DNA of 64,000 bases from Ruegeria spongiae. Its GTDB lineage: Bacteria; Pseudomonadota; Alphaproteobacteria; Rhodobacterales; Rhodobacteraceae. The stretch lies in the NCBI RefSeq assembly GCF_023502395.1, contig NZ_JAMFMB010000003.1:1-64000 (forward strand). The letters run 5' to 3'. Below, one piece after another: positions 41,696 to 60,162 of this stretch; the stretch's first letter is position 1; every line of letters starts with the position of its first letter. The translations under genes were made by a program, and so were the position numbers. The notes below the pieces were generated by a model. That model saw only the letters and a program-made list of their open reading frames with translations, made no database searches and was not told the DNA's origin.

Positions 41696-41752
41696 CGGGG
41701 TTTCCTTGCTTTGAGCGTCAAAAATACCGGCGGAGAACACCCCGTCAATGCT

Positions 41753-41770
41753 CCTGCGGATATCCGCAGG
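41753..41770. promoter_or_regulatory. Perfect 18-bp palindrome between lyase and TRAP genes
   Basis: CCTGCGGATATCCGCAGG is identical to its reverse complement over all 18 bases. It lies midway in the 174-bp region between two divergent starts (41695 minus, 41870 plus), the ideal place for one operator controlling both. LacI- and GntR-type regulators bind such symmetric sites. The LacI gene 3.4 kb away is a candidate. A role as an operator is inferred. Confidence 0.55.
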
Positions 41771-41869
41771 GATCGGCGCGGGGCACGCGCGGATTCCTTC
41801 ATTGCCAAGCCGGAACACACAGGCGATGCTTCCCGTCATCGCATTCGAGCGCTTCTGGGAGGAACCATC

Positions 41870-42883
41870 ATGCGCAATTATCTCACCGGGACGGCTGTTG
41901 CCGCCCTAACCCTTGCCTTTGCAGGCGAAGCGCTGGCCACTGAGTGGAATGTCTCGCTCTGGGGCAAGCGGCGCGCCTTTACTGAACATGTGGAAAAACT
42001 GGCCGAACTGGTCAATGAAAAGACCGGTGGCGCGTTCACGCTGAACATCAGCTATGGCGGGCTGTCCAAGAACAAGGAAAACCTCGACGGGATCGAGATC
42101 GGCGCCTTCGAGATGGCGCAGTTCTGTGCCGGATATCACCGCGACAAGAACCCCTCGATCACCGTGCTGGAACTGCCCTTTCTGGGTGTGAATTCGTTGG
42201 AGCAGGAGATCGAGCTGTCGATGGCGGTCTATCAGCATCCCGCCACGGTCGAGGATCTGGCGCGCTGGAACGCAACGCTGCTGATGCCTTCGCCGCTGCC
42301 GCAATACAATCTGGTCGGTGTTGGCGACGCCCCTGCCTCGCTGGCGGATTTCGAGGGTCTCAACGTGCGGGCTACCGGCGGTATCGGCAAGGCGATGGAA
42401 ACCGTGGGCGCGGTGCCGACATCAATGTCCGCCACCGAAGTGCGTCAGGCGATGGATAGCGGTGTGGTCAAGGCGGTGGCCTTTGCCCCCCATGCGCATA
42501 TGTCCTTTGGCACCATCGAAAATGGCGCCTGGTGGACCTCGAACCTGAACCCCGGCACGGTAAACTGCCCGGTGGTGGTCAATACCGATGCGCTGAACGA
42601 CCTGTCGGAGGAACATCGCGCCGCACTGCTGGGCTCGGTCGAGGAATCGCTGGCCCATTACGTGGACAACTACAACAACAACACCATGAACGCCTGGGGT
42701 CCGGCGCTGGACGAACGCGGGATAACGCAGGTGACCTTCTCGGACGGGGATATCGAAGCTTTCAAAGCGGCCGCCGCTGCACCTGCCGCCGCGGCCTGGA
42801 TCGAGGAAAACAAGGCTCGCGGCCTGCCCGCGCAGGAGCTTTATGACCTCGTGACCGGCATGATTGCCGAGGGCAACAGCTAA
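41870..42883 (+). CDS. dctP: TRAP transporter substrate-binding protein
   Basis: A 337-residue periplasmic receptor of the DctP family. Signal peptide MRNYLTGTAVAALTLAFAGEALA. The receptor body shows GGLSKNKENLDGIEIGAFEM and the ligand-gripping NVRATGGIGKAMETVGAVPTSM, where the Arg normally forms a salt bridge to a carboxylate. Start at ATG 41870 with GGGAGGA 8 bp upstream. First gene of dctPQM. The ligand is probably an organic acid, perhaps a uronate or oligouronate given the lyase next door (inference). Confidence 0.93.
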   Translation: MRNYLTGTAVAALTLAFAGEALATEWNVSLWGKRRAFTEHVEKLAELVNEKTGGAFTLNISYGGLSKNKENLDGIEIGAFEMAQFCAGYHRDKNPSITVLELPFLGVNSLEQEIELSMAVYQHPATVEDLARWNATLLMPSPLPQYNLVGVGDAPASLADFEGLNVRATGGIGKAMETVGAVPTSMSATEVRQAMDSGVVKAVAFAPHAHMSFGTIENGAWWTSNLNPGTVNCPVVVNTDALNDLSEEHRAALLGSVEESLAHYVDNYNNNTMNAWGPALDERGITQVTFSDGDIEAFKAAAAAPAAAAWIEENKARGLPAQELYDLVTGMIAEGNS

Positions 42884-42958
42884 GCCCGACACCCCGCGCC
42901 CCTCAGCGGGGCGCGGGGCTGTGCCCAGCCAACACTTCACATGGAAGGAGCGTCCGTC

Positions 42959-43591
42959 ATGGCCGGTTCATCTCTGGTGCTTTCCGATGACAGTCTGCTC
43001 AGCCGGTTGGACCAACGCCTGTACCGCCTTGAGGGGGTGCTGGCCCTGCTCAGCGGTCTGGCGGTGTTTTCGCTGATGCTGCTTGCCGTCGTCTCGGTCG
43101 GTGGACGCAACCTGTTCAACCAGCCGCTGCCGGGCTATGTGGACTGGATCGAACAGGCGATGCCGCTGATCGCGTTCATGGGAATCTCTTACACCCAGCG
43201 CGATGGCGGCCATATTCGCATGGACATGATCGTCGGCAAGCTGCGCGGACGCACGCTGTATCTGGTCGAGTTCATCACCACGTTTGCGATCCTGATCCTG
43301 ATGGCGCTGCTGGTCTGGGGCAGCTGGGCGCATTTCGACCGCAGCTTCGATTTCGGTGCGCCGCTGTGGAGCCGCGACAGCTCGATGGATATCGCTCTGC
43401 CGATCTGGCCCGCCAAGCTGCTGGCGCCGGTTGCGTTCGGCGTGCTCTGCCTGCGGCTGGTGTTGCAACTTATCGCTTATGGCAAGGCGTTCCGAGACAA
43501 TGATGCGAGACCAGTGGCGGTGCCACTGATCGCCGATGCCGCGACGCAGGCCGCGATGGAGGCCGAGCATGTCTCGGCCCACGAAGAATAG
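42959..43591 (+). CDS. dctQ: TRAP transporter small membrane subunit
   Basis: A 210-residue four-helix membrane protein that pairs with DctM (segments near ALLSGLAVFSLMLLAVVSV, VDWIEQAMPLIAFMGISY, FITTFAILILMALLVW and LLAPVAFGVLCLRLV). Start at ATG 42959 because GGAG is 9 bp upstream; another in-frame ATG lies at 42941. 75 bp after dctP, 12 bp before dctM. Confidence 0.9.
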   Translation: MAGSSLVLSDDSLLSRLDQRLYRLEGVLALLSGLAVFSLMLLAVVSVGGRNLFNQPLPGYVDWIEQAMPLIAFMGISYTQRDGGHIRMDMIVGKLRGRTLYLVEFITTFAILILMALLVWGSWAHFDRSFDFGAPLWSRDSSMDIALPIWPAKLLAPVAFGVLCLRLVLQLIAYGKAFRDNDARPVAVPLIADAATQAAMEAEHVSAHEE

Positions 43592-43603
43592 GGGTAGCAG
43601 GCC

Positions 43604-45004
43604 ATGGAACCGATTGAAATTGGTCTGATCGTTTCAGGCGGTATGCTGGTGCTGGTCGTGCTGGGAATGCGGGTGGCCTTTGCCGCCGGGCTTGCCGGGC
43701 TCATTGGCCTGATCTGGATCTTCTGGGCCAAGTTCGGCTATGATCCCGAGCGCTTTGGCAAAGCGGTCACCGTTGCGGTCAAGACCGCAGGTCAGGTCCC
43801 GCATTCCAAGATCTCGTCCCAGGCGCTGTCGCTGATCCCCACCTTCATCCTGATCGGATATCTCGCCTATTACGCCGGCCTGACCAAGGCGCTGTTTGAG
43901 GCCGCCAAGCGCTGGCTGGCCTGGGTGCCGGGCGGGCTGGCCGTCTCCACGGTCTTTGCCACCGCGGGCTTTGCCGCCGTGTCCGGTGCCTCGGTCGCGA
44001 CCTCGGCGGTCTTTGCCCGCATTGCCATCCCAGAGATGCTGAAGATCGGCTATGACAAACGCTTTGCAGCCGGTGTGGTGGCCGCAGGCGGCACGCTCGC
44101 CTCGCTGATCCCGCCCTCGGCCATCTTGGTGATCTACGCAATCATTGTCGAGCAGGATGTGGGCAAACTGCTGCTGGCGGGCTTCATCCCCGGCGCGTTT
44201 TCAGCGCTGATCTACGGGCTGCTGATCATCACCATGGCGCTGATGATCAAGGGCTTTGGCCCGCCGGTCTCGGGCTTTACCTGGCGCGAGCGGTTTGTGT
44301 CGCTGCCCCCGGCGCTGCCCATCCTCTTTGTTGTCGTGACCATCATCTTCTTTGTCTACAACCCCTTTGGCGGCGATGCCTGGGGAACCCCCACCGAGGG
44401 CGGTGCTATCGGGGCTTTCGTGGTGTTCCTGATGGCGCTCTATCGCGGTATGCGGTGGGCCGAGTTGAAGGACGCGCTGCTGGAAACCGCCAAGCTCAGC
44501 GTGATGATCTTCACAATCATCTGGGGCGTGCTGATTTATGTGCGCTTCCTGGGTTTTGCCGATCTGCCGGGTGCGTTCTCCGACTGGATCACCTCGCTGA
44601 CCATGTCTCCAATGCTGATCCTGGTCTGCATCCTGCTGGCCTATGCGGTGCTGGGCATGTTCATGGACGCCATCGGCATGCTGCTCTTGACCCTGCCCGT
44701 GGTCTATCCGGCGGTGATGGCGCTGAACGGCGGCGAGGCTGTGTCAGCGGCGGACAGCACCTTTGGCATGAGCGGGCCGATGTGCGCGATCTGGTTCGGG
44801 ATACTGGTGGTGAAAATGGCCGAGTTCTGCCTGATCACCCCGCCCATCGGGCTCAACTGCTTTGTGGTGGCGGGCGTGCGCGACGACCTGAGCGTGCAGG
44901 ACGTGTTCAAGGGCGTGACACCCTTCTTCATCGCCGACGCAATCACCATCGCGCTGCTGGTGTCTTTCCCGGCAATCGTGCTGTGGCTGCCCAGTCAGGT
45001 CTGA
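43604..45004 (+). CDS. dctM: TRAP transporter large permease
   Basis: A 466-residue sodium-driven permease with about twelve to fourteen membrane segments. Family motifs include SGASVATSAVFARIAIPEMLKIGYDKRFAAG, SLIPPSAILVIYAII and the C-terminal GMFMDAIGMLLLTLPV with LITPPIGLN. It completes the dctPQM operon. The next gene downstream is a decayed SDR. Confidence 0.94.
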   Translation: MEPIEIGLIVSGGMLVLVVLGMRVAFAAGLAGLIGLIWIFWAKFGYDPERFGKAVTVAVKTAGQVPHSKISSQALSLIPTFILIGYLAYYAGLTKALFEAAKRWLAWVPGGLAVSTVFATAGFAAVSGASVATSAVFARIAIPEMLKIGYDKRFAAGVVAAGGTLASLIPPSAILVIYAIIVEQDVGKLLLAGFIPGAFSALIYGLLIITMALMIKGFGPPVSGFTWRERFVSLPPALPILFVVVTIIFFVYNPFGGDAWGTPTEGGAIGAFVVFLMALYRGMRWAELKDALLETAKLSVMIFTIIWGVLIYVRFLGFADLPGAFSDWITSLTMSPMLILVCILLAYAVLGMFMDAIGMLLLTLPVVYPAVMALNGGEAVSAADSTFGMSGPMCAIWFGILVVKMAEFCLITPPIGLNCFVVAGVRDDLSVQDVFKGVTPFFIADAITIALLVSFPAIVLWLPSQV

Positions 45005-45114
45005 ACAGTCGCGGCCATCCGATTTGGCGCAAACGGATCGGCGGGTGACGGTATCCGCGCAGCGGTCGCACCCCCACGCCGACAGGCTGAGACAATTGCG
45101 ATGGAGGGTTCGTT

Positions 45115-45546
45115 TTGGGTTTTGACGGTAGATGCATTCTGGTCACCGGCGGCGTCAGCGGGATTGGCCATGCCATTGCGCGCAAGTGTGCCTCAGCCGG
45201 TGCGGTTGTTGCCGTTGCGGACCAGAACGAAGCAGGCGCGCGCGACGCGGCTGCCGCTATTACAGCTTCCGGCAGCAAGGCAGTCGCAATAAGAGCCGAC
45301 ATATCCGACCCTGAAGATGTCAGCTGGATGTTCACCTTTGCATCAGCGCTCACCGGGCGAATAAACGGCATGGCGCACTGCGCCGGGATCGCGGCCAACC
45401 GCTATGGCACGCCGGAGGAAGTTGCTGAAGTTGCAGCCTTCCTGCTCAGCGAAGCGGCGGCTTACGTGAACGGCGTTGTGATGCCGATTGACGGCGCGTT
45501 CATGCGTTCAGGCGTGATCAAAAGAAACATGAACCCTGGTCGCTAG
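45115..45546 (+). pseudogene. Short-chain dehydrogenase with internal deletion
   Basis: A 143-residue remnant of an SDR that is normally about 250 residues. The NAD-binding half is present (ILVTGGVSGIGHAIARK, RADISDPEDV, GRINGMAHCAGIAAN) and joins directly to a normal C-terminal segment (RYGTPEEVAEVAAFLLSEAAAYVNG, IDGAF). The catalytic Ser and Tyr-x-x-x-Lys region of about 110 residues is missing, with the frame kept. TTG start with GGAGG upstream. It lies about 110 bp after dctM and may have been part of that operon. Without the Tyr/Lys it should be catalytically dead. Confidence 0.8.
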
Positions 45547-45605
45547 GTATCGGATCAGGCAATTTGATGGTGTGATCCGTTCGTCGGGCGGAAATCTGGA
45601 GCGTC

Positions 45606-46484
45606 TTAATCGGCCATTGATCTCAGAAATGCCGTGACCTCACCATGGAAAGGAATGGACGCTGCGGCACCGGTTTTCTGCACCTTGAGCGCCGCGCCCG
45701 CGCTGGCGAAGCGCATGGCCTGCGCGACCGGTTCTCCGGCAGCGTAGCGCGCCAGAAACATGCCAAAAAACGTGTCCCCTGCCCCGGTGGTATCCACTGG
45801 ATCAATCCGGAAGGCCGGGACCGAGATCTCTTGGCCCTGCGACCAGTGAACGGCCCCTTTGCTGCCATAGGTGATCAGGAAATCGGGCGCGGTTAGATCG
45901 CGGTATGACCCGCCTATGGCGGCCTCGAACTGGGCGGTTTCGGTCTCGTTCATCGACACCAGATCCACCTGCCGGATCAGGTCCGGCAGGGTATCGCCAT
46001 CAAAAGGCGCGGCCACCAGCGCAACCTTCATGCCCTTTTCGCGGGCAATCTTCAGCCCCAGATCATTGGCATTGGTTTCGTTCTGCAACAGCAGCCAGTC
46101 GCCCGGCAGCACCCCGGCAAGGGCGGCACGCACCATCTCTTCGGTAAAGCTGTGATTGGCACCGCCATGAATCACGATGCTGTTTTCGGATGCCGCATCC
46201 ACATAGACGATCGCATGACCAGTGCTGGCCTCAACCTCGGCAATCAGTTCGCCTTTGACGCCCAGATCATCCAGCATCGCGCGCACCTGCGCGTCGCCCT
46301 GCCCGACCGCGCCGACATGTCGGATGTCACCACCCGCGCGCAGCGCGGCGACGGTCATGTTCAGCCCCTTGCCGCCCATGTTCACGATATAGTCGCGCGC
46401 CGACAGGGTCTCTCCCGGGGTGGGCAGGTGATCGACCAGATAGAGGTGGTCGATATTAATTGAGCCGAGATTGTAGATGGTCAC
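45606..46484 (-). CDS. PfkB-family carbohydrate kinase (ribokinase-like)
   Basis: A 292-residue sugar kinase. Conserved features are GSINIDHLYLVDHLP at the N-terminus, GGKGLNMTVAALRAGG for sugar binding and DTTGAGDTFFGMF near the C-terminus with the catalytic Asp. It lies 9 bp after the nucleoside hydrolase gene, so phosphorylation of ribose released from nucleosides is the likely role (inference). Convergent with the SDR remnant. Confidence 0.9.
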   Translation of the reverse strand: MTIYNLGSINIDHLYLVDHLPTPGETLSARDYIVNMGGKGLNMTVAALRAGGDIRHVGAVGQGDAQVRAMLDDLGVKGELIAEVEASTGHAIVYVDAASENSIVIHGGANHSFTEEMVRAALAGVLPGDWLLLQNETNANDLGLKIAREKGMKVALVAAPFDGDTLPDLIRQVDLVSMNETETAQFEAAIGGSYRDLTAPDFLITYGSKGAVHWSQGQEISVPAFRIDPVDTTGAGDTFFGMFLARYAAGEPVAQAMRFASAGAALKVQKTGAAASIPFHGEVTAFLRSMAD

Positions 46485-46493
46485 CGGTCACCC

Positions 46494-47405
46494 CTATTCC
46501 AGCGTGGCGACAACATCGAAGAACCGCGCCTTGACTGCCTCGGCATCGATGCCGAGGCAGATGTCGACCGGCGGGTTTGACGGGTCGCGGATTGTCTGGC
46601 CCGAGGCCGCTTCGGTCAGGTCGACGGTCAGACCGCTGCGTTCGGTCGTGAACAGCCCCATATGCGTGGCCGCGATCACCGCCGTGGCATCATGCATGGC
46701 GCAGCCGGTCTCACCAACGACGGTTTCGTAGAAATTACGGTAGAATTCACTGATCTTCAGCAGGAACCCTCCGGCCTTGGGCGCGGCTTGGGCAAGCGTC
46801 ACGAAATCCTCGCGCAGACAGAGCGTCTGCATGGTCACATCCAGACCAACCAGCGTGATCTTGGCGCCGGAGGCAAATACCTCGGCAGCGGCATGGGGGT
46901 CGTGAAAGATGTTGGCCTCGGCATGGCCGCGGATATTGCCGGGCACGTCCACCGCCCCGCCCATGATGACAATGCGCCCGACATTTGCGGCAAATTTGGG
47001 ATCAAGCCGCACTGCATCAGCGATGTTGGTCAGCGGAGACACCGCGCAGACGGTCAGTTCGCCGGGATTTTCCCGCGCCATGCGCACCAGAAATTCCGCA
47101 GCGCTTTCGTCGATTGGAGCGCGCGTTGTGGCGATGTCGATATGGTCCCCGAACCCTTCGGGTCCGTGCACATGCGCCGAAGGCTTGAACCCGGTCATCT
47201 CGTAGGGAGCGGCGGCGCCCTGCGCCACCGGACAGTCCGCGCCCAGAAAGTCGACCAGGTAATTGGCGTTGCGGGTGGCCTGTTCGACCCAGACATTACC
47301 GAATACCGAGGTCAGCCCCACCAGTTCGATATCTGGCGCGGCATGGGCGTAAAAGATCGCCATGGCGTCATCCACGCCCGGATCGGTGTCTATGATGATC
47401 TTCAT
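46494..47405 (-). CDS. Nucleoside hydrolase (inosine-uridine preferring family)
   Basis: Hydrolyses the N-glycosidic bond of ribonucleosides to give ribose and a free base. A 303-residue protein with the Ca-binding signature DTDPGVDDAMAI at the N-terminus, VCAVSPLTNIADAV, and EANIFHDPHAAAEVF. The active-site His candidate is in GCAMHDATAV. It forms an operon with the downstream ribokinase-like gene. The upstream hybrid kinase gene on the same strand ends 36 bp away. Confidence 0.92.
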   Translation of the reverse strand: MKIIIDTDPGVDDAMAIFYAHAAPDIELVGLTSVFGNVWVEQATRNANYLVDFLGADCPVAQGAAAPYEMTGFKPSAHVHGPEGFGDHIDIATTRAPIDESAAEFLVRMARENPGELTVCAVSPLTNIADAVRLDPKFAANVGRIVIMGGAVDVPGNIRGHAEANIFHDPHAAAEVFASGAKITLVGLDVTMQTLCLREDFVTLAQAAPKAGGFLLKISEFYRNFYETVVGETGCAMHDATAVIAATHMGLFTTERSGLTVDLTEAASGQTIRDPSNPPVDICLGIDAEAVKARFFDVVATLE

Positions 47406-47441: not shown

Positions 47442-49640
47442 TTACCCGGGAAGACCTGCCAGATACGCCTTTAGCGCGCCCGGATCAAATGGCTTGTGCA
47501 ACAGCAACGCACCCAGGCGCTCTGCCGTGTCCCGCAGCGCGATGTCGCGATCAGCAGAGACCAGACAGGCCGGCAGCGGGCCAAAGCGGTTGCGGAGCGC
47601 CGTGATTGCGTCAGAACCCGACCGCCTGTCATCCAGTTGCATGTCCGCAACCACCACATCGGGTGCGACGCCGATCTCGCCCAGCAGGGCGAAAGCCTCG
47701 TCTTCGCTGCAACAGGCCAGCACATCGAGGCCCCATTGTTCCATCGTCACGGTCAGCGCATTGCGCAGTTCCGCGTCATTTTCGATCAGCAGCACGATCA
47801 GATGGCCGATCTGCCCGTCCTGCGCTGGCGCGGCCACTCCGGGTTCGGGCGCGGCAACCCGCCCCGCCCTGGGCAATTCGACCCAGAACACGGTGCCCCC
47901 ACCGGGCTGTGACGACAATCCTAGCGGATGCCCCAGCAAGGCACAGGCCCGTTCAACGATGGCCAGCCCCAGACCCATACCGTCGGCGGCGCTTGCGCTG
48001 GCGTTGAGGCGCTGAAACTCGCCAAAGATCCGGTCCTGTTCCTCTTCTTCAATACCAGGTCCGGTGTCCCAGACCTCAACCCGTACTGCCTTTCCCAGAT
48101 GCCGCACACCGACCAGCACGCGGCCATTATCAGTGTAGCGGATCGCGTTCGATATGAGGTTCTGCAGGATTCGCTGCAGATAGGTGGTGTCGCTTGCAAC
48201 CTGAACTCCGGTGGCCAGGACCCTGAAATCCAACCCTTTGGCATCGGCCATCGGTCGCCACTCGTCGCGCAGCTGGTTCAGCATCAGACCCAGCGAGACC
48301 GGAAGCACATGCACGCTGGCCTGCCCCGAATCCAGTTTCGAGATATCAAGCAGCGCGCCCAGAATGGTCTCGACGCTTTGCAGCGCTTTGGTCGCCTTGG
48401 AGGCCATCTCGCCGGGCGGGCCCCCGGCAAGCTCCTGTTCAAGTGACGCCAGATAGAGCTTGGCCGCCGACAAAGGCTGCAGCAGATCATGCGAGGCCGC
48501 CGCGACAAAGCGCGATTTCGAGGCGTTGGCCCGTTCTGCTTCGCTCAGTGCATCCTCAAGGTCCAATGTGCGGTCCAGAACACGTTGCTCCAGCGTTTCC
48601 TTGGCCTCGATCACCGCCCGGATCGCCTGCCGTTCCGAGGTGACATCGGTAAAGCTGATCACGAAACCGCCATCGGGCATCTGCTGCATGAAAACGGTCA
48701 GCACCCGACTGCCACGGCCCTGGATTTCGAACGAAAGCGGCTCCCGCCTGCCCTTGTGACCGGCCCAGTCCAGCACCAGCCGGGGCGAGGCATGGTCGGA
48801 AAAGCTGTAATCGCCGCGCAACCGCTTGAAGATCGTCGAGAATCGGTTACCGATTTGAAACTGGCCCACCGGGATCGACAGCAATGCGCCCGCCCGGCGG
48901 TTCCAGCCAACCAACCTGCCCTGCGTATCGAAGATGCAGACCCCCTGTTCGAGATGTTCCAACGTCGCCCGGATCAGCCGCGCCTGATCATCGAGCATGC
49001 GCTCACGTTCGCGGCGTTCCAACCGCATGATGTCGGTCACATCGGTCTGCAGGATCACGGTACCGCCATCGGTCGTGCGGTGTTCGCTGACCTGAACCCA
49101 GCGCTTGCCGGTCATTCGCGCGTTGAAGATGACCGAGTTGTCCTGATGATGCCGCATCCGCCGCTGTGCCCAGGCTTGCGGCGTCTCGCCATCCGGAAGC
49201 GACAGAAACACACTCTGGCTGACCACCTGCACATAATCCGCAAAACCCAGCCCGGGTTTCAACTGATCGCGGATGTCGGGCATATGCATGCCGAACCGGC
49301 TGTTGCACATGACCAGTTCGTCCGCAGCATTGAACAGCGCGAACCCCTCCTGCACCGTCTCGATCGCGTTAGCGAGGTTGGATCGGGCGGCTTCGGTCTC
49401 GCGGTTGGCGATGGCCAGCCTGGCATTCGATTCGTTGAGCAGATCCAGCGCACGTTCCAGGTCCTGCGTGCGCGAGCGGACCTCTTCCTCCAGCATCACG
49501 GCGCGCTGGAACTGGGTATAGGCCAAACCCGAAGCGTCGGTGTCCTGTTCAACCCGGCGCATCAGGGTTTCGGTGATCCTGAGCAGTTTCTCGTTCTGCC
49601 GGGCCAGCGAATCTCGTGGGTCGATCAAGGCATGCGGCAT
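47442..49640 (-). CDS. Hybrid PAS sensor histidine kinase (NahK-like)
   Basis: A 732-residue soluble kinase without membrane helices. Layout: N-terminal coiled coil (1-95), PAS (about 90-205, TVQEGFALFNAADELVMCN), a second PAS (about 225-335, LEQGVCIFDTQGRLVGWNRRAG), HisKA with phospho-His384 in AAASHDLLQPLSAAKLYL, an ATPase domain (NLISNAIRYTDNG, DTGPGIE, GMGLGLAIVERA) and a C-terminal receiver with phospho-Asp in VVVADMQLDD. The ASHDLLQPL H-box is typical of the NahK/ErcS' group. It follows the FIST gene by 3 bp, so the two proteins very likely work together. Confidence 0.9.
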   Translation of the reverse strand: MPHALIDPRDSLARQNEKLLRITETLMRRVEQDTDASGLAYTQFQRAVMLEEEVRSRTQDLERALDLLNESNARLAIANRETEAARSNLANAIETVQEGFALFNAADELVMCNSRFGMHMPDIRDQLKPGLGFADYVQVVSQSVFLSLPDGETPQAWAQRRMRHHQDNSVIFNARMTGKRWVQVSEHRTTDGGTVILQTDVTDIMRLERRERERMLDDQARLIRATLEHLEQGVCIFDTQGRLVGWNRRAGALLSIPVGQFQIGNRFSTIFKRLRGDYSFSDHASPRLVLDWAGHKGRREPLSFEIQGRGSRVLTVFMQQMPDGGFVISFTDVTSERQAIRAVIEAKETLEQRVLDRTLDLEDALSEAERANASKSRFVAAASHDLLQPLSAAKLYLASLEQELAGGPPGEMASKATKALQSVETILGALLDISKLDSGQASVHVLPVSLGLMLNQLRDEWRPMADAKGLDFRVLATGVQVASDTTYLQRILQNLISNAIRYTDNGRVLVGVRHLGKAVRVEVWDTGPGIEEEEQDRIFGEFQRLNASASAADGMGLGLAIVERACALLGHPLGLSSQPGGGTVFWVELPRAGRVAAPEPGVAAPAQDGQIGHLIVLLIENDAELRNALTVTMEQWGLDVLACCSEDEAFALLGEIGVAPDVVVADMQLDDRRSGSDAITALRNRFGPLPACLVSADRDIALRDTAERLGALLLHKPFDPGALKAYLAGLPG

Positions 49641-49643
49641 GGG

Positions 49644-50813
49644 TTACGCCCCCTTGGGCGGATAGATCGCAACGCCGGTCAAGGTCTGGTTCACATGCAT
49701 CGAGTTGATCTGTTCACCATAGGTACTGAACCCCACGACCCGGTTTTCTGCCAATATCCGCGACAGCTGGCCAGTTTTCTGCTTCTGTTGCGCCTCAAGC
49801 TTTCGCAACAGGCAGTCGCAGGCCAGAATGATGTCGGGCGGACCCTCTGCGGTCAGCGCGTCCAGCTCGGATTGCAGATGCTCGCCCATGTCGCGCGGAT
49901 CGGCCAAGGTCAATACAACCCCTTCGTCGATGGCTGAAAAGAAAACCAGATCGCCGTTTTCGGCAACCTGCTGGATCGAACGTACGTGATGCTGTCCACC
50001 CAACCGGACCACGACCGGATGCGCCGCAAAGGTGAACGTGTCGAGTTGTTCCGGGTCCTTGCCCAGCAGGCGGGCATATTCGCGCGCGGCGGGTTCGGCG
50101 TTGATCTCATGCACGATCCGTCGCGCCGGATCGGCGCCTGTCACCACCATGCGCTGCTCGGTCGGCAGCAGGTGGTCGGTATTGAACACCCGGATCGGGC
50201 AATTCGTGCGCACCTGAACCAGCACCGCCGCATTCGACCGCACAACCCCGTCATACAGGACATAAGCCTGCCCGAAATCGGTGCCGTCCCCGGACGAGCC
50301 GCCAAAGAGTGGAACCGGTCCAAGCCCGGGGGCCAGATCGGCGGTCAGCGCGTCTTCCTTGATTGACAGCCCGTCGATCATCATGAAGGTGAATTCGAAA
50401 GGCCAGTCGGGCGTTTCGCGCGCCATCTCGTTTCGGTGACGGATGATCTGATCGATCAGACCCTGACTGTCATAACTGTCCAGATCGTCAATCTGCAGAA
50501 CCCGGGTGCAGAAATTGCCGCGCGGCAGGCCAATGGCGACGATCCCGCCATCGGAATACCCCTGTCCGGACAGCTCACCAGCGGTAGTGCATCCAACTAC
50601 GTGGGCCGGGGCCAGCAAGTGCTGCGCCTGCGCCGTCACCAGCGGTAGATCGGCGGTGGGTGAGGCGAACAGGATCACAAGCTCCAGATCCGCAGGCAGA
50701 AGATCGCGCGCGAGGTGCTCAACCGCATCGGGATCACTGGCATCTGCAAAGGCTGAGCGCACGATTTCCGGGGCGCTCGCCAGCGCCCGCGCAAGACCGA
50801 GGGCCTGGCTCAT
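49644..50813 (-). CDS. FIST-domain sensor protein (NosP-like)
   Basis: A 389-residue cytosolic protein with FIST_N (about 30-220: HVVGCTTAGELSGQGYSDGGIVAIGLP, LFGGSSGDG) and FIST_C (about 225-375: DIILACDCLLRKLEAQ, VVGFSTYGEQINSMHVNQT). NosP of Pseudomonas aeruginosa, a heme-binding FIST protein that senses nitric oxide, is encoded next to the hybrid kinase NahK in the same arrangement as here. Heme binding by this protein is not proven; His pairs such as GQHHVRS are candidates only. It sits between the LuxR-type regulator and the kinase. Confidence 0.88.
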   Translation of the reverse strand: MSQALGLARALASAPEIVRSAFADASDPDAVEHLARDLLPADLELVILFASPTADLPLVTAQAQHLLAPAHVVGCTTAGELSGQGYSDGGIVAIGLPRGNFCTRVLQIDDLDSYDSQGLIDQIIRHRNEMARETPDWPFEFTFMMIDGLSIKEDALTADLAPGLGPVPLFGGSSGDGTDFGQAYVLYDGVVRSNAAVLVQVRTNCPIRVFNTDHLLPTEQRMVVTGADPARRIVHEINAEPAAREYARLLGKDPEQLDTFTFAAHPVVVRLGGQHHVRSIQQVAENGDLVFFSAIDEGVVLTLADPRDMGEHLQSELDALTAEGPPDIILACDCLLRKLEAQQKQKTGQLSRILAENRVVGFSTYGEQINSMHVNQTLTGVAIYPPKGA

Positions 50814-50852
50814 CGGGTCTCCTCCCCATTTTGTGGGCGGATCGTACGCGGC

Positions 50853-51536
50853 CTAGACGCTGTCTTGCAAGGTGTTGGCGAAACTGGTGCTCTTGGCGAT
50901 CAGCACTGCCTGGGTCCGGCTCTGGACCCCCAGCTTGCGCATGATCGCAGTGACATGCGCCTTGACCGTGGTTTCCGCGATCGACAGGTCATAGGCGATC
51001 TGCTTGTTCAGCTTGCCCTCGCAGATCAGTTGCAGGATGCGCGCCTGCTGCTTGGTCAGCGAGGCCAGGCGCGAGATCGCATCATCCGGCCCAGCCTCTT
51101 CTCGGTCCAGCAGCACATGGCCCGGCGGTAGAAAGCGCTGCCCGTCATGCAACACCCGGAAGGCGGCCTGGAACACTTCGCGCTGGCTGTGCTTGGGTAC
51201 AAACCCTGACGCGCCCGCATGAATGGCCGCGCTGATGACCCGGTCATCATCCATTGAGGACACCACGATCACCGGCACCTTGACCATGTTCTTCAGCCGC
51301 ACCAACCCCTCGAGCCCGTTCACATCCGGCAGGTTCAGGTCCAGCACGATCACATCGGGCGTGCCGTTCTGTGTCACAATCTGCACGGCACTGTCCAGAT
51401 CGGCTGCCGTCCACACCTCGCTGATCCCGATCGACGCCTTGAGCGTCATCGACAGGGCATCGCAGAAGAGCGGGTGGTCATCCACGATCAGGGCAGAGTT
51501 GAATTCGGGGGCCGGAGGTGCCGTCAAACTGCTCAT
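50853..51536 (-). CDS. LuxR/NarL-type response regulator
   Basis: A 227-residue regulator: a receiver with phospho-Asp in VIVLDLNLPDVNG (acidic pocket VDDHP) and a C-terminal LuxR helix-turn-helix (LTKQQARILQLICEGKLNKQIAYDLSIAETTVKAHVTAIMRKLGV). Start at ATG 51536, where the receiver fold begins; the longer frame to 51734 is not protein-like. First gene of the signalling cassette and divergent from coxG with 215 bp between, so it is a prime candidate regulator of both. Confidence 0.92.
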   Translation of the reverse strand: MSSLTAPPAPEFNSALIVDDHPLFCDALSMTLKASIGISEVWTAADLDSAVQIVTQNGTPDVIVLDLNLPDVNGLEGLVRLKNMVKVPVIVVSSMDDDRVISAAIHAGASGFVPKHSQREVFQAAFRVLHDGQRFLPPGHVLLDREEAGPDDAISRLASLTKQQARILQLICEGKLNKQIAYDLSIAETTVKAHVTAIMRKLGVQSRTQAVLIAKSTSFANTLQDSV

Positions 51537-51751
51537 GGATTTCTTTCGGTTGCGCGGGCGTGTCTTATGCCCGCAAGATGCCATATCGCATCCTACGTGC
51601 CGAAAGGTCGTGGCTTCAATGCAGAGATGTGAGGAAACCGGGGCGGTGTGCCCTTTGACGGGCGCGGCCGGAATGCGCAACTGCGCCTTTGGTCGAATAT
51701 GCCAGCCTGTCCCTTGCGCATAGGTTCGAACCACAATTTGGAGATTACAGC

Positions 51752-52303
51752 ATGCAACTGAGCGACAGCCGCGAAATCGCCGCTCCCCGCCCCGAGGTCT
51801 GGGCCAACCTGCTTTCTGCCGAAACCCTCAAGGGTTGTGTACCGGGATGCCAGGAAATGACCGGGTCCGCCGCCGAGGGGTTCGAGGCCGTCGTCGTGCA
51901 GAAGGTCGGCCCGGTGAAGGCGACGTTCAAGGGCGCGGTGACCATCTCGGATGTGGTCGATGGCGAAAGCCTGACACTGACCGGCGAGGGCAAGGGCGGT
52001 GCTGCAGGCTTTGCCAAGGGTGGTGCCAAGGTGAAACTCAGCGATGGTGACAATGGCGCGACGCGTCTGGAATATGATGTCGAAGCCAAGGTCGGCGGCA
52101 AGCTGGCGCAGCTTGGCAGCCGCATCATCGACGGCTTTGCAAAGAAGATGGCCGACCAGTTTTTCGAAAGGTTTCAGCAGTCTGTCGAAGGGCCGGTCGA
52201 AGAAACTGTAGCCGAACGCGATGAATCATCCCAAGATGGCGATGGGGAAGCAAAGAAAAAGGGCTGGCTCGGGCGTGTTCTGGGCAGCAAGAAAGACAAA
52301 TAG
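51752..52303 (+). CDS. coxG: CoxG-family protein (START-like carbon monoxide dehydrogenase accessory)
   Basis: A 183-residue CoxG/SRPBCC protein. The START-like domain (1-145: [45 protein letters not shown]) is followed by an acidic-to-basic tail. CoxG of Oligotropha is thought to anchor CO dehydrogenase to the membrane; the lysine-rich tail ([16 protein letters not shown]) fits such a role. Start at ATG 51752 with GGAG upstream. First gene of coxG-S-L-M, 14 bp before coxS. Confidence 0.92.
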
Positions 52304-52317
52304 GGAGGAAAGGTCAT

Positions 52318-52803
52318 ATGACCAAGGTGACCATGACGATCAACGGGAAACCCAGGTCCGGCGAAGCGGAGGGGCGCACATTGCTGGCGTCGTTCCTGCG
52401 CGAAGAGCTGGGGCTGACCGGAACCCATGTGGGCTGCGACACCAGCCAATGCGGCGCCTGCGTGGTGCATGTGGACGGCAAAGCCGTCAAAAGCTGCACC
52501 ATGTTCGCGCTCGAGGCTGACGGCGCGCAGGTCGACACGATCGAAGGACAGGCTGACGCGGATGGCACGCTCAACTCGCTCCAGCAGGCCTTTCAGGATT
52601 ATCACGGTCTGCAATGCGGCTTCTGTACGCCGGGCATGGTGATGAGCGCGGCGGCGCTGCTCAAGGACAACCCCAAACCCAGCGAGGCGGAAATCCGTCA
52701 TTATCTGGAGGGTAATATCTGCCGCTGCACCGGCTATCACAACATCGTCCGCGCCATTCTGGCCGCCAGCGGTCAGGACGTGCCCGCCGTGGCCGCCGAA
52801 TAA
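52318..52803 (+). CDS. coxS: CO dehydrogenase-like small subunit (2Fe-2S)
   Basis: A 161-residue iron-sulfur subunit of the xanthine dehydrogenase family. The plant-type cluster is bound by Cys40, Cys45, Cys48 and Cys60 ([10 protein letters not shown]...C); the second by Cys100, Cys103, Cys135 and Cys137 ([12 protein letters not shown]). It passes electrons from the Mo site in CoxL to FAD in CoxM. Perfect AGGAGG-like site upstream of ATG 52318. Confidence 0.97.
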
Positions 52804-52827
52804 CCCGAACCAGGGAGGAGAATTTAC

Positions 52828-55197
52828 ATGCCTAAAGACAGTGGCATCGGCGCCAGCCCAAAGCGGCGCGAAGACATCCGGTTTCTGACCGGAACCGGTA
52901 ACTATACCGACGACATCAACATCAACGGCCAGACCTATGCCTGGTTCATCCGCTCGGATGTGGCCCATGGCACGATCAACAGCATCGACGCTTCCGCCGC
53001 CGAAGCGATGGAGGGTGTACTCAAGGTGTTCACCTCTGCCGATTTCGCGGAAGCCGGGGGAATTCCCTGCGGCTGGGAGGTGACCGACCGGCATGGCCAG
53101 CCCATGCAGGAACCCAAACACCCGATCCTCGCCGAGGGCAAGGTGCGCCATGTTGGCGACCCGATTGCCGTGGTTGTGGCCGAGACGCTGGAACAGGCCC
53201 GCGACGCCGCCGAGGCGGTCGAGATCGATATCGACGAGCTTGAGGCGGTCATCGACATGAAAGCCGCCGTGGCCGAGGGCGCAACCAAGGTCCATGACGA
53301 TCTGACCTCGAACCTTTGCTATGACTGGGGTTTTGTCGAAGAGAACCGCGAAGCGGTGGATGAGGCGATCAAATCCGCAGCCCATGTCACCACGCTGGAA
53401 TTGGTCAACAACCGCGTCGTTGCCAACCCGATGGAACCCCGCGTGGCCGTTGGCGACTATAATCGCGCAGGCGATGAGCATACACTCTACACCACCAGCC
53501 AGAACCCGCATGTGATCCGCCTGCTGATGGGCGCGTTTGTGCTGTCCATCCCCGAGCACAAGCTGCGGGTGGTAGCCCCCGATGTGGGCGGCGGTTTCGG
53601 TGCCAAGATCTATCACTACGCCGAAGAAGCGTTTGTGACCTATGCCGCCAAGGTGCTGAACCGTCCGGTCAAATGGACGTCGAGCCGGTCCGAGGCCTTC
53701 ATCTCGGACGCCCATGGCCGCGATCACGTGACCAAGATTGAACTGGCGATGGACGAAAACCACAAGTTCACCGCAGTTCGCACCGATACCTATGCCAACA
53801 TGGGCGCTTACCTGAGCACCTTTGCACCATCCGTACCCACCTGGCTGCACGGCACGCTTATGGCGGGCAACTACATCACGCCGCTGATTTATGTGAATGT
53901 GAAGGCGGTCTTCACCAACACAGTGCCGGTGGACGCCTATCGCGGCGCGGGCCGCCCCGAGGCGACCTTCCAATTGGAACGCGTGATCGACAAGGCCGCG
54001 CGCGAGCTGGGCATGGACCCGGTCGAGTTGCGGCGCAAGAACTTTATTCAGCCCGATCAGTTCCCCTACGACACGCCTGTGGCCGTCACCTATGACACCG
54101 GAAACTATGACGCGACGATGGACAAGGCGCTTGAGGTTGCCGACTATGCCGGGTTCGAAGCACGCCGCGCCGAAAGCGAAGCGCGCGGCAAGCTGCGCGG
54201 TATCGGCGTGGCCCATTATATCGAGGCCTGCGGCATCGCGCCGTCGAACCTTGTGGGCCAATTGGGCGCCCGCGCCGGGCTTTATGAATCCGCGACCGTG
54301 CGGGTGAACGCCACCGGCTCGATCAGTGTCTTCACCGGATCGCATAGCCACGGCCAGGGCCACGAGACCACCTTTGCACAGGTCGTGTCCGAGATGATTG
54401 GTGTGGATGCCAGCCAGATCGATATCGTGCATGGCGACACCTCCAAAGTGCCGATGGGCATGGGCACTTACGGGTCCCGCTCTATCGCGGTGGGGGGCTC
54501 GGCCATGGTGCGCGCGACCGAGAAGATCATCAACAAGGCCAAAAAGATCGCGGCCCACCTGATGGAAGCCTCGGAGGCGGATATCGAGCTGAAGGACGGT
54601 GCCTTCAGCGTCGCGGGCACCGACAAGTCGGTGGCCTGGGGCGATGTCACTTTGGCGGCCTATGTGCCGCATAACTACCCGCTGGAGGATATCGAACCGG
54701 GGTTGGAGGAAAGCGCCTTCTACGATCCAGCCAACTTCACCTACCCGTCGGGCGCCTATATCTGCGAGTTGGAAGTGGACCCCGAAACCGGGGTGATCGA
54801 CATGCTGAACTTCACTGCGGCTGATGATTTCGGCAATGTCATCAACCCGATGATCGTCGAAGGTCAGGTCCATGGCGGCCTGGCCCAGGGCATCGGTCAG
54901 GCGCTGATGGAGGCATGCATTTATGACGAGAACGGCCAGCTGCTGAGCGGGTCTTTCATGGACTACACGATGCCACGCGCTGACGACATGCCGATGATGA
55001 ACGTCGACCATTCCTGCCAGACGCCGTGTACCCACAACCCGCTGGGCGTGAAGGGCTGCGGCGAGGCCGGGGCCATCGGATCGCCGCCTGCGGTGGTGAA
55101 TGCGGTGATCGATGCGCTGCACCGGGCCGGACACAAGGTGGAGCATATCGACATGCCCGTGTCTCCGGCGCGCGTCTGGAAAGCGATGCATGGGTGA
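52828..55197 (+). CDS. coxL: Form II CO dehydrogenase-like large subunit (molybdopterin)
   Basis: A 789-residue molybdopterin-cytosine-dinucleotide subunit. The active-site loop reads AYRGAGR (370-376), the hallmark of form II; form I enzymes proven to oxidise CO carry AYxCSFR with the Cu-binding Cys, which is absent here. The catalytic Glu is Glu746 in [14 protein letters not shown]. Other conserved pieces are [10 protein letters not shown] and [15 protein letters not shown]. The reaction could be CO oxidation at low rate or hydroxylation of an unknown substrate; in marine roseobacters form II alone has not been tied to CO oxidation. 24 bp after coxS. Confidence 0.95.
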
Positions 55198-55293
55198 GAC
55201 CGGGAGGAACGTGGGGGCCAGCCCCCCACACCCCTCGGGATATTTATAGCCAGATGAAGGGCGGATCGACGCTCTTTGGGAAGGTAAGACAAG

Positions 55294-56082
55294 ATGTACA
55301 ACTTTGAGTTTGTAAAACCCTCGACGGTCGAAGAAGCCGCGGCCGCCTTGCAGGGTGAGGGCGCGCAGGCGCTTGGTGGCGGGCAGACCCTGCTGCCGAC
55401 GATGAAACAGCGGCTGGCCTCGCCGGAAACGCTGGTCAGCCTGACCGGTGTTGAAGGTATGGTGGGCATTTCCGCTGGGGACGGTACCGTCACCGTGGGT
55501 GGGGCCACCACCCATGCGCAGGTGGCGTCCGAGGCGGCCTCGGCCTATCCGGCGCTGGCGGCGCTCGCGGGCCAGATCGGCGATCCGGCGGTGCGCAATC
55601 GCGGCACGATTGGCGGGTCGCTGGCCAACAATGACCCGGCGGCCTGCTACCCGTCGGCGGCGCTGGGATCGGGCGCGTCTATCTCGACCAACAAGCGCAA
55701 TATCGCGGCGGACGACTATTTCCAGGGCATGTTCGAAACCGCGCTGGACGAGGATGAGATCGTCACCTCGGTCAGTTTCCCGGTGCCCGAAGCCGCAAGC
55801 TATCAGAAGTTCCTGCAGCCTGCCTCGCGCTTTGCCCTGACCGGCGTGTTTGTGGCGAAATTCCCCGGCGGTGTCCGTGTGGCGGTCACCGGAGCGTCCA
55901 ATAACGGCGTGTTCCGCTGGACCGAGGCCGAAGAGGCGCTGAGCAAGGAATTCCGCGCCGATGCGCTGATGGATCTGCGGATCAACCATCTGAACATGAT
56001 CAGCGACCTGCATGGGTCGCAGGAATACCGGGCGCATCTGGTCGGTGTCATGACGAGACGCGCGGTGGACGCGGCGGGTTGA
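55294..56082 (+). CDS. coxM: CO dehydrogenase-like medium subunit (FAD)
   Basis: A 262-residue FAD-binding subunit, shorter than usual for CoxM (about 285) but with all FAD contacts: GGGQTLLPTMKQRL near residue 29 and IGDPAVRNRGTIGGSLANNDPAACYP near residue 96. The C-terminal domain for cluster contact is present. Separated from coxL by 96 bp. Last gene of the operon, before a strong terminator. No coxDEF-type maturation genes are in the window. Confidence 0.94.
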   Translation: MYNFEFVKPSTVEEAAAALQGEGAQALGGGQTLLPTMKQRLASPETLVSLTGVEGMVGISAGDGTVTVGGATTHAQVASEAASAYPALAALAGQIGDPAVRNRGTIGGSLANNDPAACYPSAALGSGASISTNKRNIAADDYFQGMFETALDEDEIVTSVSFPVPEAASYQKFLQPASRFALTGVFVAKFPGGVRVAVTGASNNGVFRWTEAEEALSKEFRADALMDLRINHLNMISDLHGSQEYRAHLVGVMTRRAVDAAG

Positions 56083-56098
56083 ACCCGGCAGAAACCTT

Positions 56099-56127
56099 AA
56101 AAGACCCCATTCATGTGGGGTCTTTTT
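56099..56127 (+). terminator. Rho-independent terminator after coxM
   Basis: AAAAGACCCCA (56099-56109), a 6-nt loop TTCATG, then TGGGGTCTTTT (56116-56126) and a further T. An 11-bp perfect stem ending in a U-run, 17 bp after the coxM stop. It defines the 3' end of the coxGSLM transcript. Confidence 0.92.
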
Positions 56128-58476: not shown

Positions 58477-59952
58477 TTACACCGAAAGGCAGATGTATTT
58501 CATCTCCAGGTAATCCTCGATCCCGTGATGGCTGCCTTCGCGGCCAAGACCCGATTGCTTGACGCCACCAAAGGGGCCGACCTCGGTCGAGATGATACCG
58601 GTATTGACGCCAACAATGCCATATTCGAGCGCCTCGGCGACCTTGTAGACCCGGCTCAGATCCTTGGCATAGAAATAAGAGGCAAGGCCGAAGATCGTGT
58701 CATTGGCCATGGCGATGACCTGGTCCTCATCCTCGAATTTGAAGAGTGGCGCGAGGGGACCAAAGGTTTCTTCCTGAGCGACCTTCATGTCCTGGGTCAC
58801 CCCAGTGACGACGGTGGGTTCATAAAACGTCCCGCCCAAAGCGTGCCGTTTGCCACCGGTCAGAACCTGCCCACCATGGGCGGTCACGTCCTGCAGATGC
58901 TCTTCGACCTTGGCCACAGCCTCGGCGCTGATCAACGGGCCGGTGGTGACGCCTTCGGTCAGCCCGTCGCCGACGTTCAGCTTCTCGACTGCCACTTTCA
59001 GCTTGGCGGCAAAAGCGTCATAGACGCCGGCCTGCACATAGATGCGGTTGGCGCAGACGCAGGTCTGGCCATTGTTGCGGAACTTGCACAGCATCGCGCC
59101 TTCCACGGCCGCATCAAGGTCGGCGTCGTCGAACACGATGAACGGTGCGTTGCCGCCCAATTCCATCGAGCATTTCATGACCTGCTCGGCGGATTGGCGC
59201 AGCAGAATGCGGCCCACCTCGGTCGAGCCGGTGAAGGTTAGCTTGCGCACCACCGGGTTTTCGCAGAACTCCTTGCCGATCTCGCTGGCCGAGGATGAGG
59301 GAACGATGTTCAGCACCCCGGCAGGAAGGCCCGCACGTTCTGCCAGCACGCCCAGCACCAGCGCCGAGAGCGGGGTTTCCGAGGCCGGGCGCGCAACAAA
59401 GGCGCAACCCGCCGCCAGCGCCGGACCCGCCTTGCGGGTGATCATCGCGTTGGGAAAGTTCCACGGCGTGATCGAGGCTGCCACGCCGATGGGCTGTTTC
59501 AGCACCATGATCCGCTTGTCGCGCTGGTGTCCGGGGATCGTCTCGCCATAGATGCGTTTCGCCTCTTCACCGAAGAATTCGATGAAGGAGGCGCCATAGC
59601 CGATCTCACCCACCGCCTCGGCCAGCGGTTTGCCCTGTTCGGCGCTCAGGATTTTGCCAAGGTCATCGGCGTTTTCGATCATCAGCTCGAACCAGCGGCG
59701 CAGGATCACCGCGCGCTCTTTGCCTGTCAGCCTGACCCAGTCCTTCTGCGCGGCTTCCGCGGCGGCGATGGCTTGTGCAACCTGTGCACGGCTCAGATCG
59801 GCGACCTCTGCGATCACATCCCCGCGTGCCGGGTTGGAAACCGCGAATGTGCCTTTGGCGCCATCCACCCACTGCCCGTTGATATAGGCTTGCGTGACCA
59901 GCAGTGAGGGGTCTTTCAGCATTGATTTCAGATCGGTGGCGGTGTCGAGCAT
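58477..59952 (-). CDS. gabD: NAD(P)-dependent succinate-semialdehyde dehydrogenase
   Basis: A 491-residue aldehyde dehydrogenase. Start at ATG 59952 with GGAGA 6 bp upstream; the longer frame to 60123 is not protein-like. Catalytic Cys in FRNNGQTCVCANRIYVQ, Glu in MELGGNAPFIVFDD and the GabD-type NPARGDVIAEVADLS and GVNTGIISTEVGPFGG. It oxidises succinate semialdehyde to succinate in the GABA route. No gabT is adjacent. The NAD versus NADP preference is not clear from the sequence. Confidence 0.9.
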   Translation of the reverse strand: MLDTATDLKSMLKDPSLLVTQAYINGQWVDGAKGTFAVSNPARGDVIAEVADLSRAQVAQAIAAAEAAQKDWVRLTGKERAVILRRWFELMIENADDLGKILSAEQGKPLAEAVGEIGYGASFIEFFGEEAKRIYGETIPGHQRDKRIMVLKQPIGVAASITPWNFPNAMITRKAGPALAAGCAFVARPASETPLSALVLGVLAERAGLPAGVLNIVPSSSASEIGKEFCENPVVRKLTFTGSTEVGRILLRQSAEQVMKCSMELGGNAPFIVFDDADLDAAVEGAMLCKFRNNGQTCVCANRIYVQAGVYDAFAAKLKVAVEKLNVGDGLTEGVTTGPLISAEAVAKVEEHLQDVTAHGGQVLTGGKRHALGGTFYEPTVVTGVTQDMKVAQEETFGPLAPLFKFEDEDQVIAMANDTIFGLASYFYAKDLSRVYKVAEALEYGIVGVNTGIISTEVGPFGGVKQSGLGREGSHHGIEDYLEMKYICLSV

Positions 59953-60162
59953 AGTGATTCTCCGAAGGGTGTTGGATTCCGGCATCGCGGATCGTTGTCG
60001 CAACGCTAGTTGAGCCCGCGCGCCTGTGAAAGGGCCAGTTTTACCTGCCGAACGATCCAGATTGGCGGGGTCGCGACACTTGGCCGGAACAGTTTGCTCG
60101 ACACCGCCGGACCCATTTGCCACATATACCAGTGAACCCCGAACCGGCCAAAGGGCACCGAA

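What the first reader, a model, noticed from the sequence alone, without database searches (positions are those of the whole stretch)
47442..56127. FIST/hybrid-kinase/LuxR signalling cassette divergent from form II cox operon
Three adjacent minus-strand genes encode a LuxR response regulator, a FIST protein and a soluble hybrid PAS kinase with an ASHDLLQPL H-box. The FIST-plus-kinase pair has the same arrangement as NosP and NahK of Pseudomonas, where the FIST protein binds heme and senses nitric oxide. Their promoter region faces coxG-S-L-M. A diatomic-gas sensor controlling a carbon monoxide dehydrogenase-like enzyme would be a new pairing. The sequence shows domains and arrangement; heme binding and regulation of cox are inference.
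Basis: partly seen in the sequence, partly recalled or inferred. Interest (0 to 1): 0.72.

Follow-up and report, generated by a model that had tools for sequence, protein, structure and literature searches.

The report
Alcohol-type sensor module beside CO-dehydrogenase-like enzyme
In a marine bacterium, a three-gene sensor module of the kind that elsewhere controls alcohol and formaldehyde oxidation sits next to, and shares a conserved DNA switch site with, a CO-dehydrogenase-like enzyme whose real job is unknown, which suggests that the enzyme belongs to alcohol or aldehyde metabolism.

Summary
In detail: LuxR regulator, FIST protein and soluble hybrid kinase lie divergent from form II coxG-S-L-M (AYRGAGR). 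The linkage is not accidental. Of 150 family-level genomes, 50 hold this FIST clade; 44 of these hold the cox enzyme, 25 within 25 kb, against about 0.5 expected. Layouts differ: divergent, one-strand, or at the two ends of a PQQ-alcohol-dehydrogenase (ped) cluster. A 14-base motif (TATNCGACCWWKGG) found upstream of the regulator recurs in held-out promoters of coxG, PQQ-ADH and pedF. Upstream of cox it is nearly absent in genomes without the triad (1 of 25) but present in 9 of 17 where the triad lies elsewhere. CrbR/ErdR's ACTU site words match it better than their shuffles. The R-T-S gene order is that published for FlhRS/AfdRS/RfdRS formaldehyde systems. I read it as an alcohol/aldehyde-type regulon that includes form II cox, not a CO-sensing circuit. 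Heme binding, signal, DNA binding and substrate are untested. My paper searches found no paper on this pairing; the gas-sensor reading is weak.

The parts
47442..49640 (-). soluble hybrid histidine kinase, NahK/PedS1-like (two PAS_7, HisKA H-box ASHDLLQPL, HATPase, receiver)
   Evidence: Pfam and NCBIfam; sequence
49644..50813 (-). FIST protein (FIST_N + FIST_C), NosP/GfdT-like
   Evidence: alignment of 16 sequences
50853..51536 (-). LuxR/NarL-type response regulator, nearest curated model ErdR (below cut-off)
   Evidence: start chosen by ATG at 51536
51537..51751 (.). divergent intergenic control region
51686..51699 (-). putative regulator site TATTCGACCAAAGG, 52 bases before the coxG ATG, best score in the whole window
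   Evidence: one of 3 exact pattern matches in the genome, the other two inside mechanical open frames
51601..51614 (-). weak second copy GCCACGACCTTTCG near LuxR (score 8.3, below the 95% null level)
51752..52303 (+). coxG
   Evidence: Pfam COXG; start by ATG and upstream GGAG
52318..52803 (+). coxS, [2Fe-2S] subunit
52828..55197 (+). coxL, form II molybdenum subunit (AYRGAGR)
55294..56082 (+). coxM, FAD subunit

Best explanation
LuxR-FIST-kinase is a two-component triad of the FlhR-orf2-FlhS / AfdRTS / NosP-NahK / PedS1-AgmR kind. The FIST protein gates the soluble kinase (inferred from NosP-NahK); the kinase phosphorylates the LuxR regulator (inferred); the regulator binds TATNCGACCWWKGG sites in the divergent promoter and drives coxGSLM, probably also its own gene (motif and its distribution shown, binding inferred). 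In relatives the same site stands before PQQ alcohol dehydrogenase, pedF and cox alike, so the output is an alcohol/aldehyde oxidation regulon. The form II 'CO dehydrogenase' is then most likely an aldehyde- or alcohol-pathway molybdenum hydroxylase (inferred). The window species has no PQQ-ADH that I could find and holds the triad with cox alone.
For: Linkage: 25 of the 44 genomes holding both have them within 25 kb (about 0.5 expected); 38 of 80 named loci have coxL within the 10-kb flank (the best 80 of at least 535 relatives, several genomes shared with the first set). Layouts differ and contexts interleave on the FIST and CoxL trees. In 9 loci SBP-coxGSLM, with pedF before it in 8, run on one strand with gaps of at most 135 bases (coxM not within the stretch in 2); an annotated Ruegeria plasmid shows the same cluster. 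Motif held out, over the 95% null level: ped-type coxG 9 of 11, PQQ-ADH 14 of 17, pedF 9 of 14, NMT1-like 6 of 7, LuxR 10 of 18, one-strand coxG 4 of 6, against FIST 0 of 18 and coxL 0 of 11. In trans: 9 of 17 against 1 of 25 distinct genomes without the triad clade. The six distinct ACTU words of CrbR/ErdR seen score higher than all but 0 to 28 of 2000 shuffles each. R-T-S gene order of afd, rfd and flh operons. In G029 the LuxR gene alone lies before cox, with a strong site upstream. Own genome: no match over the CO dehydrogenase cut-off, no PQQ-ADH at E<=1e-100.
Against: No expression or binding data. The motif is missed in 2 of 11 ped-type coxG promoters and 8 of 17 trans cases; at the 99% level only 5 of 11 coxG, 4 of 17 PQQ-ADH and 1 of 18 LuxR pass. 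In the named loci coxG passes in 7 of 11 divergent (3 of 7 without training words) and 17 of 26 one-strand loci, LuxR of the latter in 10 of 26. Near the distant, GSH-FDH-linked FIST copies it is mostly absent (PQQ-ADH 0 of 11, LuxR 2 of 17, GSH-FDH 4 of 12). Kinase-upstream regions scored 9 of 18, which I put down to conserved FIST codons. Genome-wide the pattern is not enriched (86 hits with up to one mismatch, 136 for the reversed pattern). That afdT/rfdT/orf2 are FIST proteins is inferred from order, not tested. 14 of 50 clade-1 genomes have FIST near neither cox nor PQQ-ADH, and 70 cox genomes lack the clade, so cox does not need it. Outside the family none of 14 loci shows cox.
Confidence: 0.62

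Rival explanations
1. One reading: the FIST protein is a heme NO/CO sensor and the triad switches a CO-oxidising enzyme according to the gas.
For: FIST proteins named NosP bind heme and gate kinases in an NO-dependent way in other species (PMC12570481 passages; PMC8846402 passages). Invariant His275, His276, His373 and Cys332, Cys334 in 16 aligned sequences could ligate heme.
Against: Context of the FIST relatives is largely alcohol/aldehyde oxidation. Form II cox has no settled CO role (PMC13203968; PMC13240472; passages). Score below the NosP cut-off. The review writes 'perhaps' and 'may' for FIST and NO.
Confidence: 0.12
2. The triad does control cox as part of alcohol regulation, but the enzyme does oxidise CO, as a supplementary electron source during alcohol or C1 growth.
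For: Same linkage and motif data; the nearest solved structures by sequence are CO dehydrogenases.
Against: AYRGAGR lacks the form I cysteine motif; isolates with only form II often show no CO uptake (passage). The best NCBIfam model of the large subunit is a glyceraldehyde dehydrogenase (666 bits, below its cut-off 790; CO dehydrogenase 646, cut-off 991).
Confidence: 0.16
3. Neighbourhood by inheritance only: the triad regulates something else and cox merely shares the locus.
For: 14 of 50 clade-1 genomes keep the triad away from both cox and PQQ-ADH, and 70 cox genomes lack the clade.
Against: Motif before cox in 9 of 17 trans cases (some may be contig breaks), repeated linkage in different layouts.
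Confidence: 0.1

Closest known systems
FlhR-orf2-FlhS (Paracoccus denitrificans), AfdR-T-S and RfdR-T-S (Rhodobacter, now Cereibacter, sphaeroides)
   Same: Regulator, middle gene T and kinase in one operon; formaldehyde/methanol context (PMC4776306 passages; PMC8879981 passages). Cereibacter johrii, same genus as R. sphaeroides, has two FIST genes, one of them in the cox locus, so that one probably corresponds to Afd or Rfd.
   Different: Published targets in the passages are GSH-formaldehyde dehydrogenase and C1 genes; cox is not named in them. T as FIST is inferred.
ped/exa cluster triad PP_2663-PedS1-AgmR / nosP-nahK-erbR (Pseudomonas)
   Same: FIST, soluble hybrid kinase and LuxR regulator together in the cluster of PQQ-ADH, pedF and ABC genes (PMC12997753, passages and two sections); relatives of the window locus share these.
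   Different: No cox in the table passages read; window genome has no PQQ-ADH found; gene order differs (LuxR first here).
CrbS/CrbR (MxtR/ErdR) acetate/ethanol system and ACTU site
   Same: Regulator's best curated model is ErdR; ACTU words match the motif (PMC5715377 passages).
   Different: Kinase there carries a transporter domain; no FIST named in the passages; regulator score 171 against cut-off 390.
Form II aerobic CO dehydrogenase (CoxSLM)
   Same: AYRGAGR motif and S-L-M order.
   Different: coxG is the first gene and the unit shares a site with ped genes; AAA, CoxE-like and XdhC genes are not adjacent in the window.

Membership tests
NosP (NCBIfam NF041558) | FIST_N and FIST_C domains | tested here: met
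NosP (NCBIfam NF041558) | score over the curated cut-off (450 bits) | tested here: not met
   389.6 bits
NosP (NCBIfam NF041558) | heme and NO binding | not testable with these tools
   candidate His/Cys residues only; no solved relative by sequence at E<=0.01
NahK / near_NosP_CTERM | score over cut-off (400 bits for NF041832) | tested here: not met
   350.7 bits
ErdR | score over cut-off (390 bits) | tested here: not met
   171.3 bits, best of 80 models
FlhRS/AfdRTS/RfdRTS | regulator, T gene, kinase in that order in one operon | tested here: met
   order and short gaps in window and relatives; published arrangement
FlhRS/AfdRTS/RfdRTS | sequence orthology to FlhR, FlhS, AfdT | tested here: inconclusive
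   no named sequences compared; two FIST genes in C. johrii; 'GfdT protein' as annotated name of a FIST relative
FlhRS/AfdRTS/RfdRTS | response to formaldehyde | not testable with these tools
   -
ped/exa regulatory triad | linked PQQ-ADH and ped genes | tested here: not met
   window genome has no PQQ-ADH at E<=1e-100; met in relatives, 22 of 50 clade-1 genomes within 25 kb
Form II CO dehydrogenase | AYRGAGR motif and coxSLM order | tested here: met
Form I CO dehydrogenase | score over TIGR02416 cut-off (991 bits) | tested here: not met
   646 bits
CO dehydrogenase (function) | CO oxidation | not testable with these tools
   -

The most novel reading that the evidence does not exclude
Form II 'CO dehydrogenase' of this bacterial family is an alcohol/aldehyde-pathway molybdenum hydroxylase, placed in the PQQ-alcohol (ped) regulon by a FIST-kinase-LuxR triad and one shared operator; in lineages without the PQQ enzyme the triad and the molybdoenzyme persist as a stand-alone aldehyde-response unit. 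The FIST protein would read an aldehyde or alcohol-derived signal, possibly combined with NO through the NO-linked role of GSH-formaldehyde dehydrogenase (recalled).
Probability: 0.4. Interest if true: 0.78.

Novelty: new variant of a known kind. Interest (0 to 1): 0.6.

Why it matters
[quoted passage not shown] A named regulator, a precise candidate operator and a pathway context turn the question into a few direct experiments, and warn against counting such genomes as CO oxidisers. It also re-frames FIST/NosP proteins: in these bacteria their neighbourhood is alcohol and formaldehyde oxidation rather than nitric oxide or CO.

Tried and rejected
CO/NO sensor as first choice: set back by context. 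Aldehyde dehydrogenase at 58477-60123 as part of the unit: rejected; it is 32-36% identical to the ALDHs next to triads in L047, L048, L050, L054, L103, L107, L111, L213, L214, L217, L220. Genome-wide regulon of the window species by pattern: 3 exact matches, two inside open frames; 18 of the 83 one-mismatch hits were looked at, 2 clearly intergenic; none of the six neighbouring proteins searched in Pfam is an alcohol or aldehyde enzyme. Kinase-upstream motif hits are read as FIST codons. Presence/absence of triad and cox is only weakly associated (44 of 50 against 70 of 100, Fisher p 0.015); the strong signal is position. Heme ligands: not decidable; no solved FIST relative by sequence, and no structure was predicted. 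NosP papers PMC10478957, PMC5468770, PMC6812680 and the 2004 R. sphaeroides paper (JB 186:7914) were not held. Paper searches for the pairing: one search gave 1 paper, one search gave 4, (coxL, flhS, flhR, NosP, pedF, afdR, any two) gave 3, none with coxL; one search listed 12 of 416. By titles and abstract starts none of those listed is about the pairing.
Full report
What is there. The three minus-strand genes and the divergent coxG-S-L-M set are as described. The kinase carries two PAS_7 folds, an ASHDLLQPL H-box, an ATPase and a C-terminal receiver. The FIST protein has both FIST domains. The regulator has receiver and LuxR DNA-binding domains; its likely start is 51536. CoxL has the form II motif AYRGAGR. 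In NCBIfam the best hits are NosP, NahK/near_NosP_CTERM and ErdR, all below the curated cut-offs, so I do not file them as those equivalogs.

Conserved linkage. The FIST protein was searched in 150 family-level genomes: 57 have it. 50 genomes hold the closer clade (at least 49% identity); 18 hold a copy at 36-43% identity, 11 of them besides the closer one. On the tree the distant copies fall into two groups. A close CoxL relative is in 114 of 150. Of the 50, 44 have coxL, 25 of them within 25 kb on one contig (window included); about 0.5 are expected by chance placement (binomial about 1e-36, which ignores shared ancestry). Two further genomes have coxG at the end of the FIST contig and coxL near the start of another (L049, L053). 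22 of 50 have a PQQ alcohol dehydrogenase within 25 kb, 11 both, 36 either, 14 neither.

Layouts. Of the 25 linked loci, 8 are divergent and adjacent like the window (coxG not called by my mechanical gene finder in two), 1 is divergent with two ped ABC genes between, 6 carry LuxR-FIST-kinase-coxGSLM on one strand, 9 have cox at the far end of a ped cluster, and 1 has PQQ-ADH plus cox maturation genes between. The ped genes were named on one representative each, over their cut-offs: PQQ_enz_alc_DH, PQQ_ABC_repeats, PQQ_ABC_bind, PQQ_ABC_ATP, PedC, c550_PedF. In a second listing of 80 named loci (the best 80 of at least 535 relatives), 38 have coxL within the flank, 14 PQQ-ADH, 4 only coxG/S (one of these with PQQ-ADH), 25 neither; some loci are cut by contig ends and several genomes are the same as in the first set. 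Annotated plasmids agree: Ruegeria sp. THAF33 shows the divergent layout, with one small gene between, Ruegeria sp. SCSIO 43209 the full ped-cox cluster; a third, Rhodobacteraceae bacterium SC52, has the triad followed by pedF and no cox within 9 kb.

The shared site. Upstream regions of LuxR from 15 divergent or one-strand loci (9 including the coxG-only locus L046, plus 6) gave one ungapped 14-base motif, 15 of 15 on the same strand, information 13.2 bits against 8.8-9.2 in six block-shuffled sets (60 restarts for the real set, 40 for the shuffled). With the matrix from those 15 words, promoters not used for training were scored against random 230-base stretches. Over the 95% level: ped-type coxG 9 of 11, PQQ-ADH 14 of 17, pedF 9 of 14, NMT1-like 6 of 7 (these share a divergent region with PQQ-ADH in several loci), LuxR 10 of 18, one-strand coxG 4 of 6; FIST 0 of 18, coxL 0 of 11; cox units of the coxL-only loci 1 of 4 (coxG) and 1 of 19 (coxS). 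Over the 99% level the figures are 5 of 11, 4 of 17, 7 of 14, 2 of 7, 1 of 18 and 1 of 6. Ped-type coxG against coxL-only: Mann-Whitney p 1.2e-5. The kinase-upstream control scored 9 of 18 because conserved FIST codons (FSTYG, my reading) resemble the motif. In the named loci coxG passes in 7 of 11 divergent (3 of 7 without training words) and 17 of 26 one-strand loci, LuxR of the latter in 10 of 26, coxL and FIST in none.

In trans. Where a genome holds the clade-1 triad but cox lies elsewhere, 9 of 17 cox units have the site (8 of 11 led by coxG, 1 of 6 led by coxS); without the clade it is 1 of 27 rows, 1 of 25 distinct genomes. The exception, L065, has ped ABC genes beside coxG and a distant FIST copy elsewhere. 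Some trans cases (such as L233, L239, at short contigs or contig starts) may be contig breaks. In G029 the regulator alone lies before coxGSLM with a strong site upstream of it, while FIST and kinase lie beside an aldehyde dehydrogenase. The window site is 51686-51699, the best in the window and one of three exact pattern matches in the genome.

What kind of system. The ACTU site of CrbR, the ErdR orthologue, was shown to be needed for activation in Pseudomonas fluorescens (PMC5715377, passages). Six distinct ACTU words visible in that passage, some of them predictions of the authors, score on my matrix higher than their own shuffles: as high in 0, 26, 6, 23, 7 and 28 of 2000. A review describes afdR-afdT-afdS, rfdR-rfdT-rfdS and flhR-orf2-flhS as regulators of formaldehyde oxidation (PMC4776306, passages; FlhRS also PMC8879981, passages). 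The order matches LuxR-FIST-kinase. Each of three Cereibacter/Luteovulum genomes has two FIST genes, one in the cox locus. The other groups on the tree with copies of G046 and G084, which lie near GSH-formaldehyde dehydrogenase and a PQQ dehydrogenase (L191, L196). Of 18 fetched loci of distant FIST copies, 13 hold the GSH-formaldehyde dehydrogenase family and 11 the PQQ dehydrogenase (families named on one representative each; XoxF is my name for this PQQ enzyme, by context). So the cox-linked copy of the Cereibacter group probably corresponds to one of the two R. sphaeroides systems; which one I could not test. In Pseudomonas the pair lies in the ped cluster (PMC12997753, passages and two sections). 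Outside the family (17 of 289 class-level genomes have FIST at E<=1e-50, 13 of them in other families) I fetched 14 loci: 10 hold PQQ-ADH, ALDH, ped ABC or GSH-FDH relatives, 2 others formylglutathione hydrolase or SoxYZ/SoxH-like PQQ relay genes, 2 none of these; cox in none.

Enzyme. All 45 CoxL compared carry AYRGAGR, and the contexts interleave on the tree (bootstrap not fully settled), so one enzyme type seems to have been linked to or unlinked from the triad repeatedly. The window genome has no hit over the CO dehydrogenase cut-off and no PQQ-ADH at E<=1e-100. Two 2026 surveys call the role of form II unclear or unresolved (passages).

Judgement. Shown: genes, linkage, site and its distribution. 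Inferred: that LuxR binds the site, that FIST gates the kinase, what the signal is, and that the enzyme oxidises an aldehyde or related compound. The gas-sensor reading is not excluded but rests on the NosP resemblance. My searches listed no paper on form II cox with a FIST triad; the library lacks most subscription papers.

Noticed in passing
L046 and L208 (G069): coxG alone stands beside the triad while coxSLM with XdhC and another maturation-type gene lies elsewhere in the genome.
   Followed up: partly
L226 and L054 (G029): Triad is split: LuxR with coxGSLM, FIST and kinase next to an aldehyde dehydrogenase.
   Followed up: partly
L062-L081: Of 20 cox loci without the clade-1 triad, 13 have an XdhC/CoxI gene and 13 an IF-3 gene in the stretch, often with AAA and CoxE-like VWA genes; only 5 have coxG.
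   Followed up: no
L229, L231, L234: cox is paired with ped ABC genes (ABCatp, in two loci PedC too) although the triad lies on another contig, and the site is present.
   Followed up: partly
L190-L207: Distant FIST copies lie with a PQQ dehydrogenase, GSH-formaldehyde dehydrogenase and SoxYZ/SoxH-like PQQ relay proteins; the cox-type motif is mostly absent there.
   Followed up: partly
window 41654-47405: TRAP transporter genes, a ribokinase-like PfkB and a nucleoside hydrolase: perhaps a nucleoside or ribose uptake set beside the cassette.
   Followed up: no
window 61089-63627: DUF5928/Branch glycosyltransferase-like gene beside a sulfotransferase.
   Followed up: no
plasmid records: FIST relatives on 212 plasmid records, among them Sinorhizobium 76, Pantoea 48, Pseudosulfitobacter 40.
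   Followed up: no
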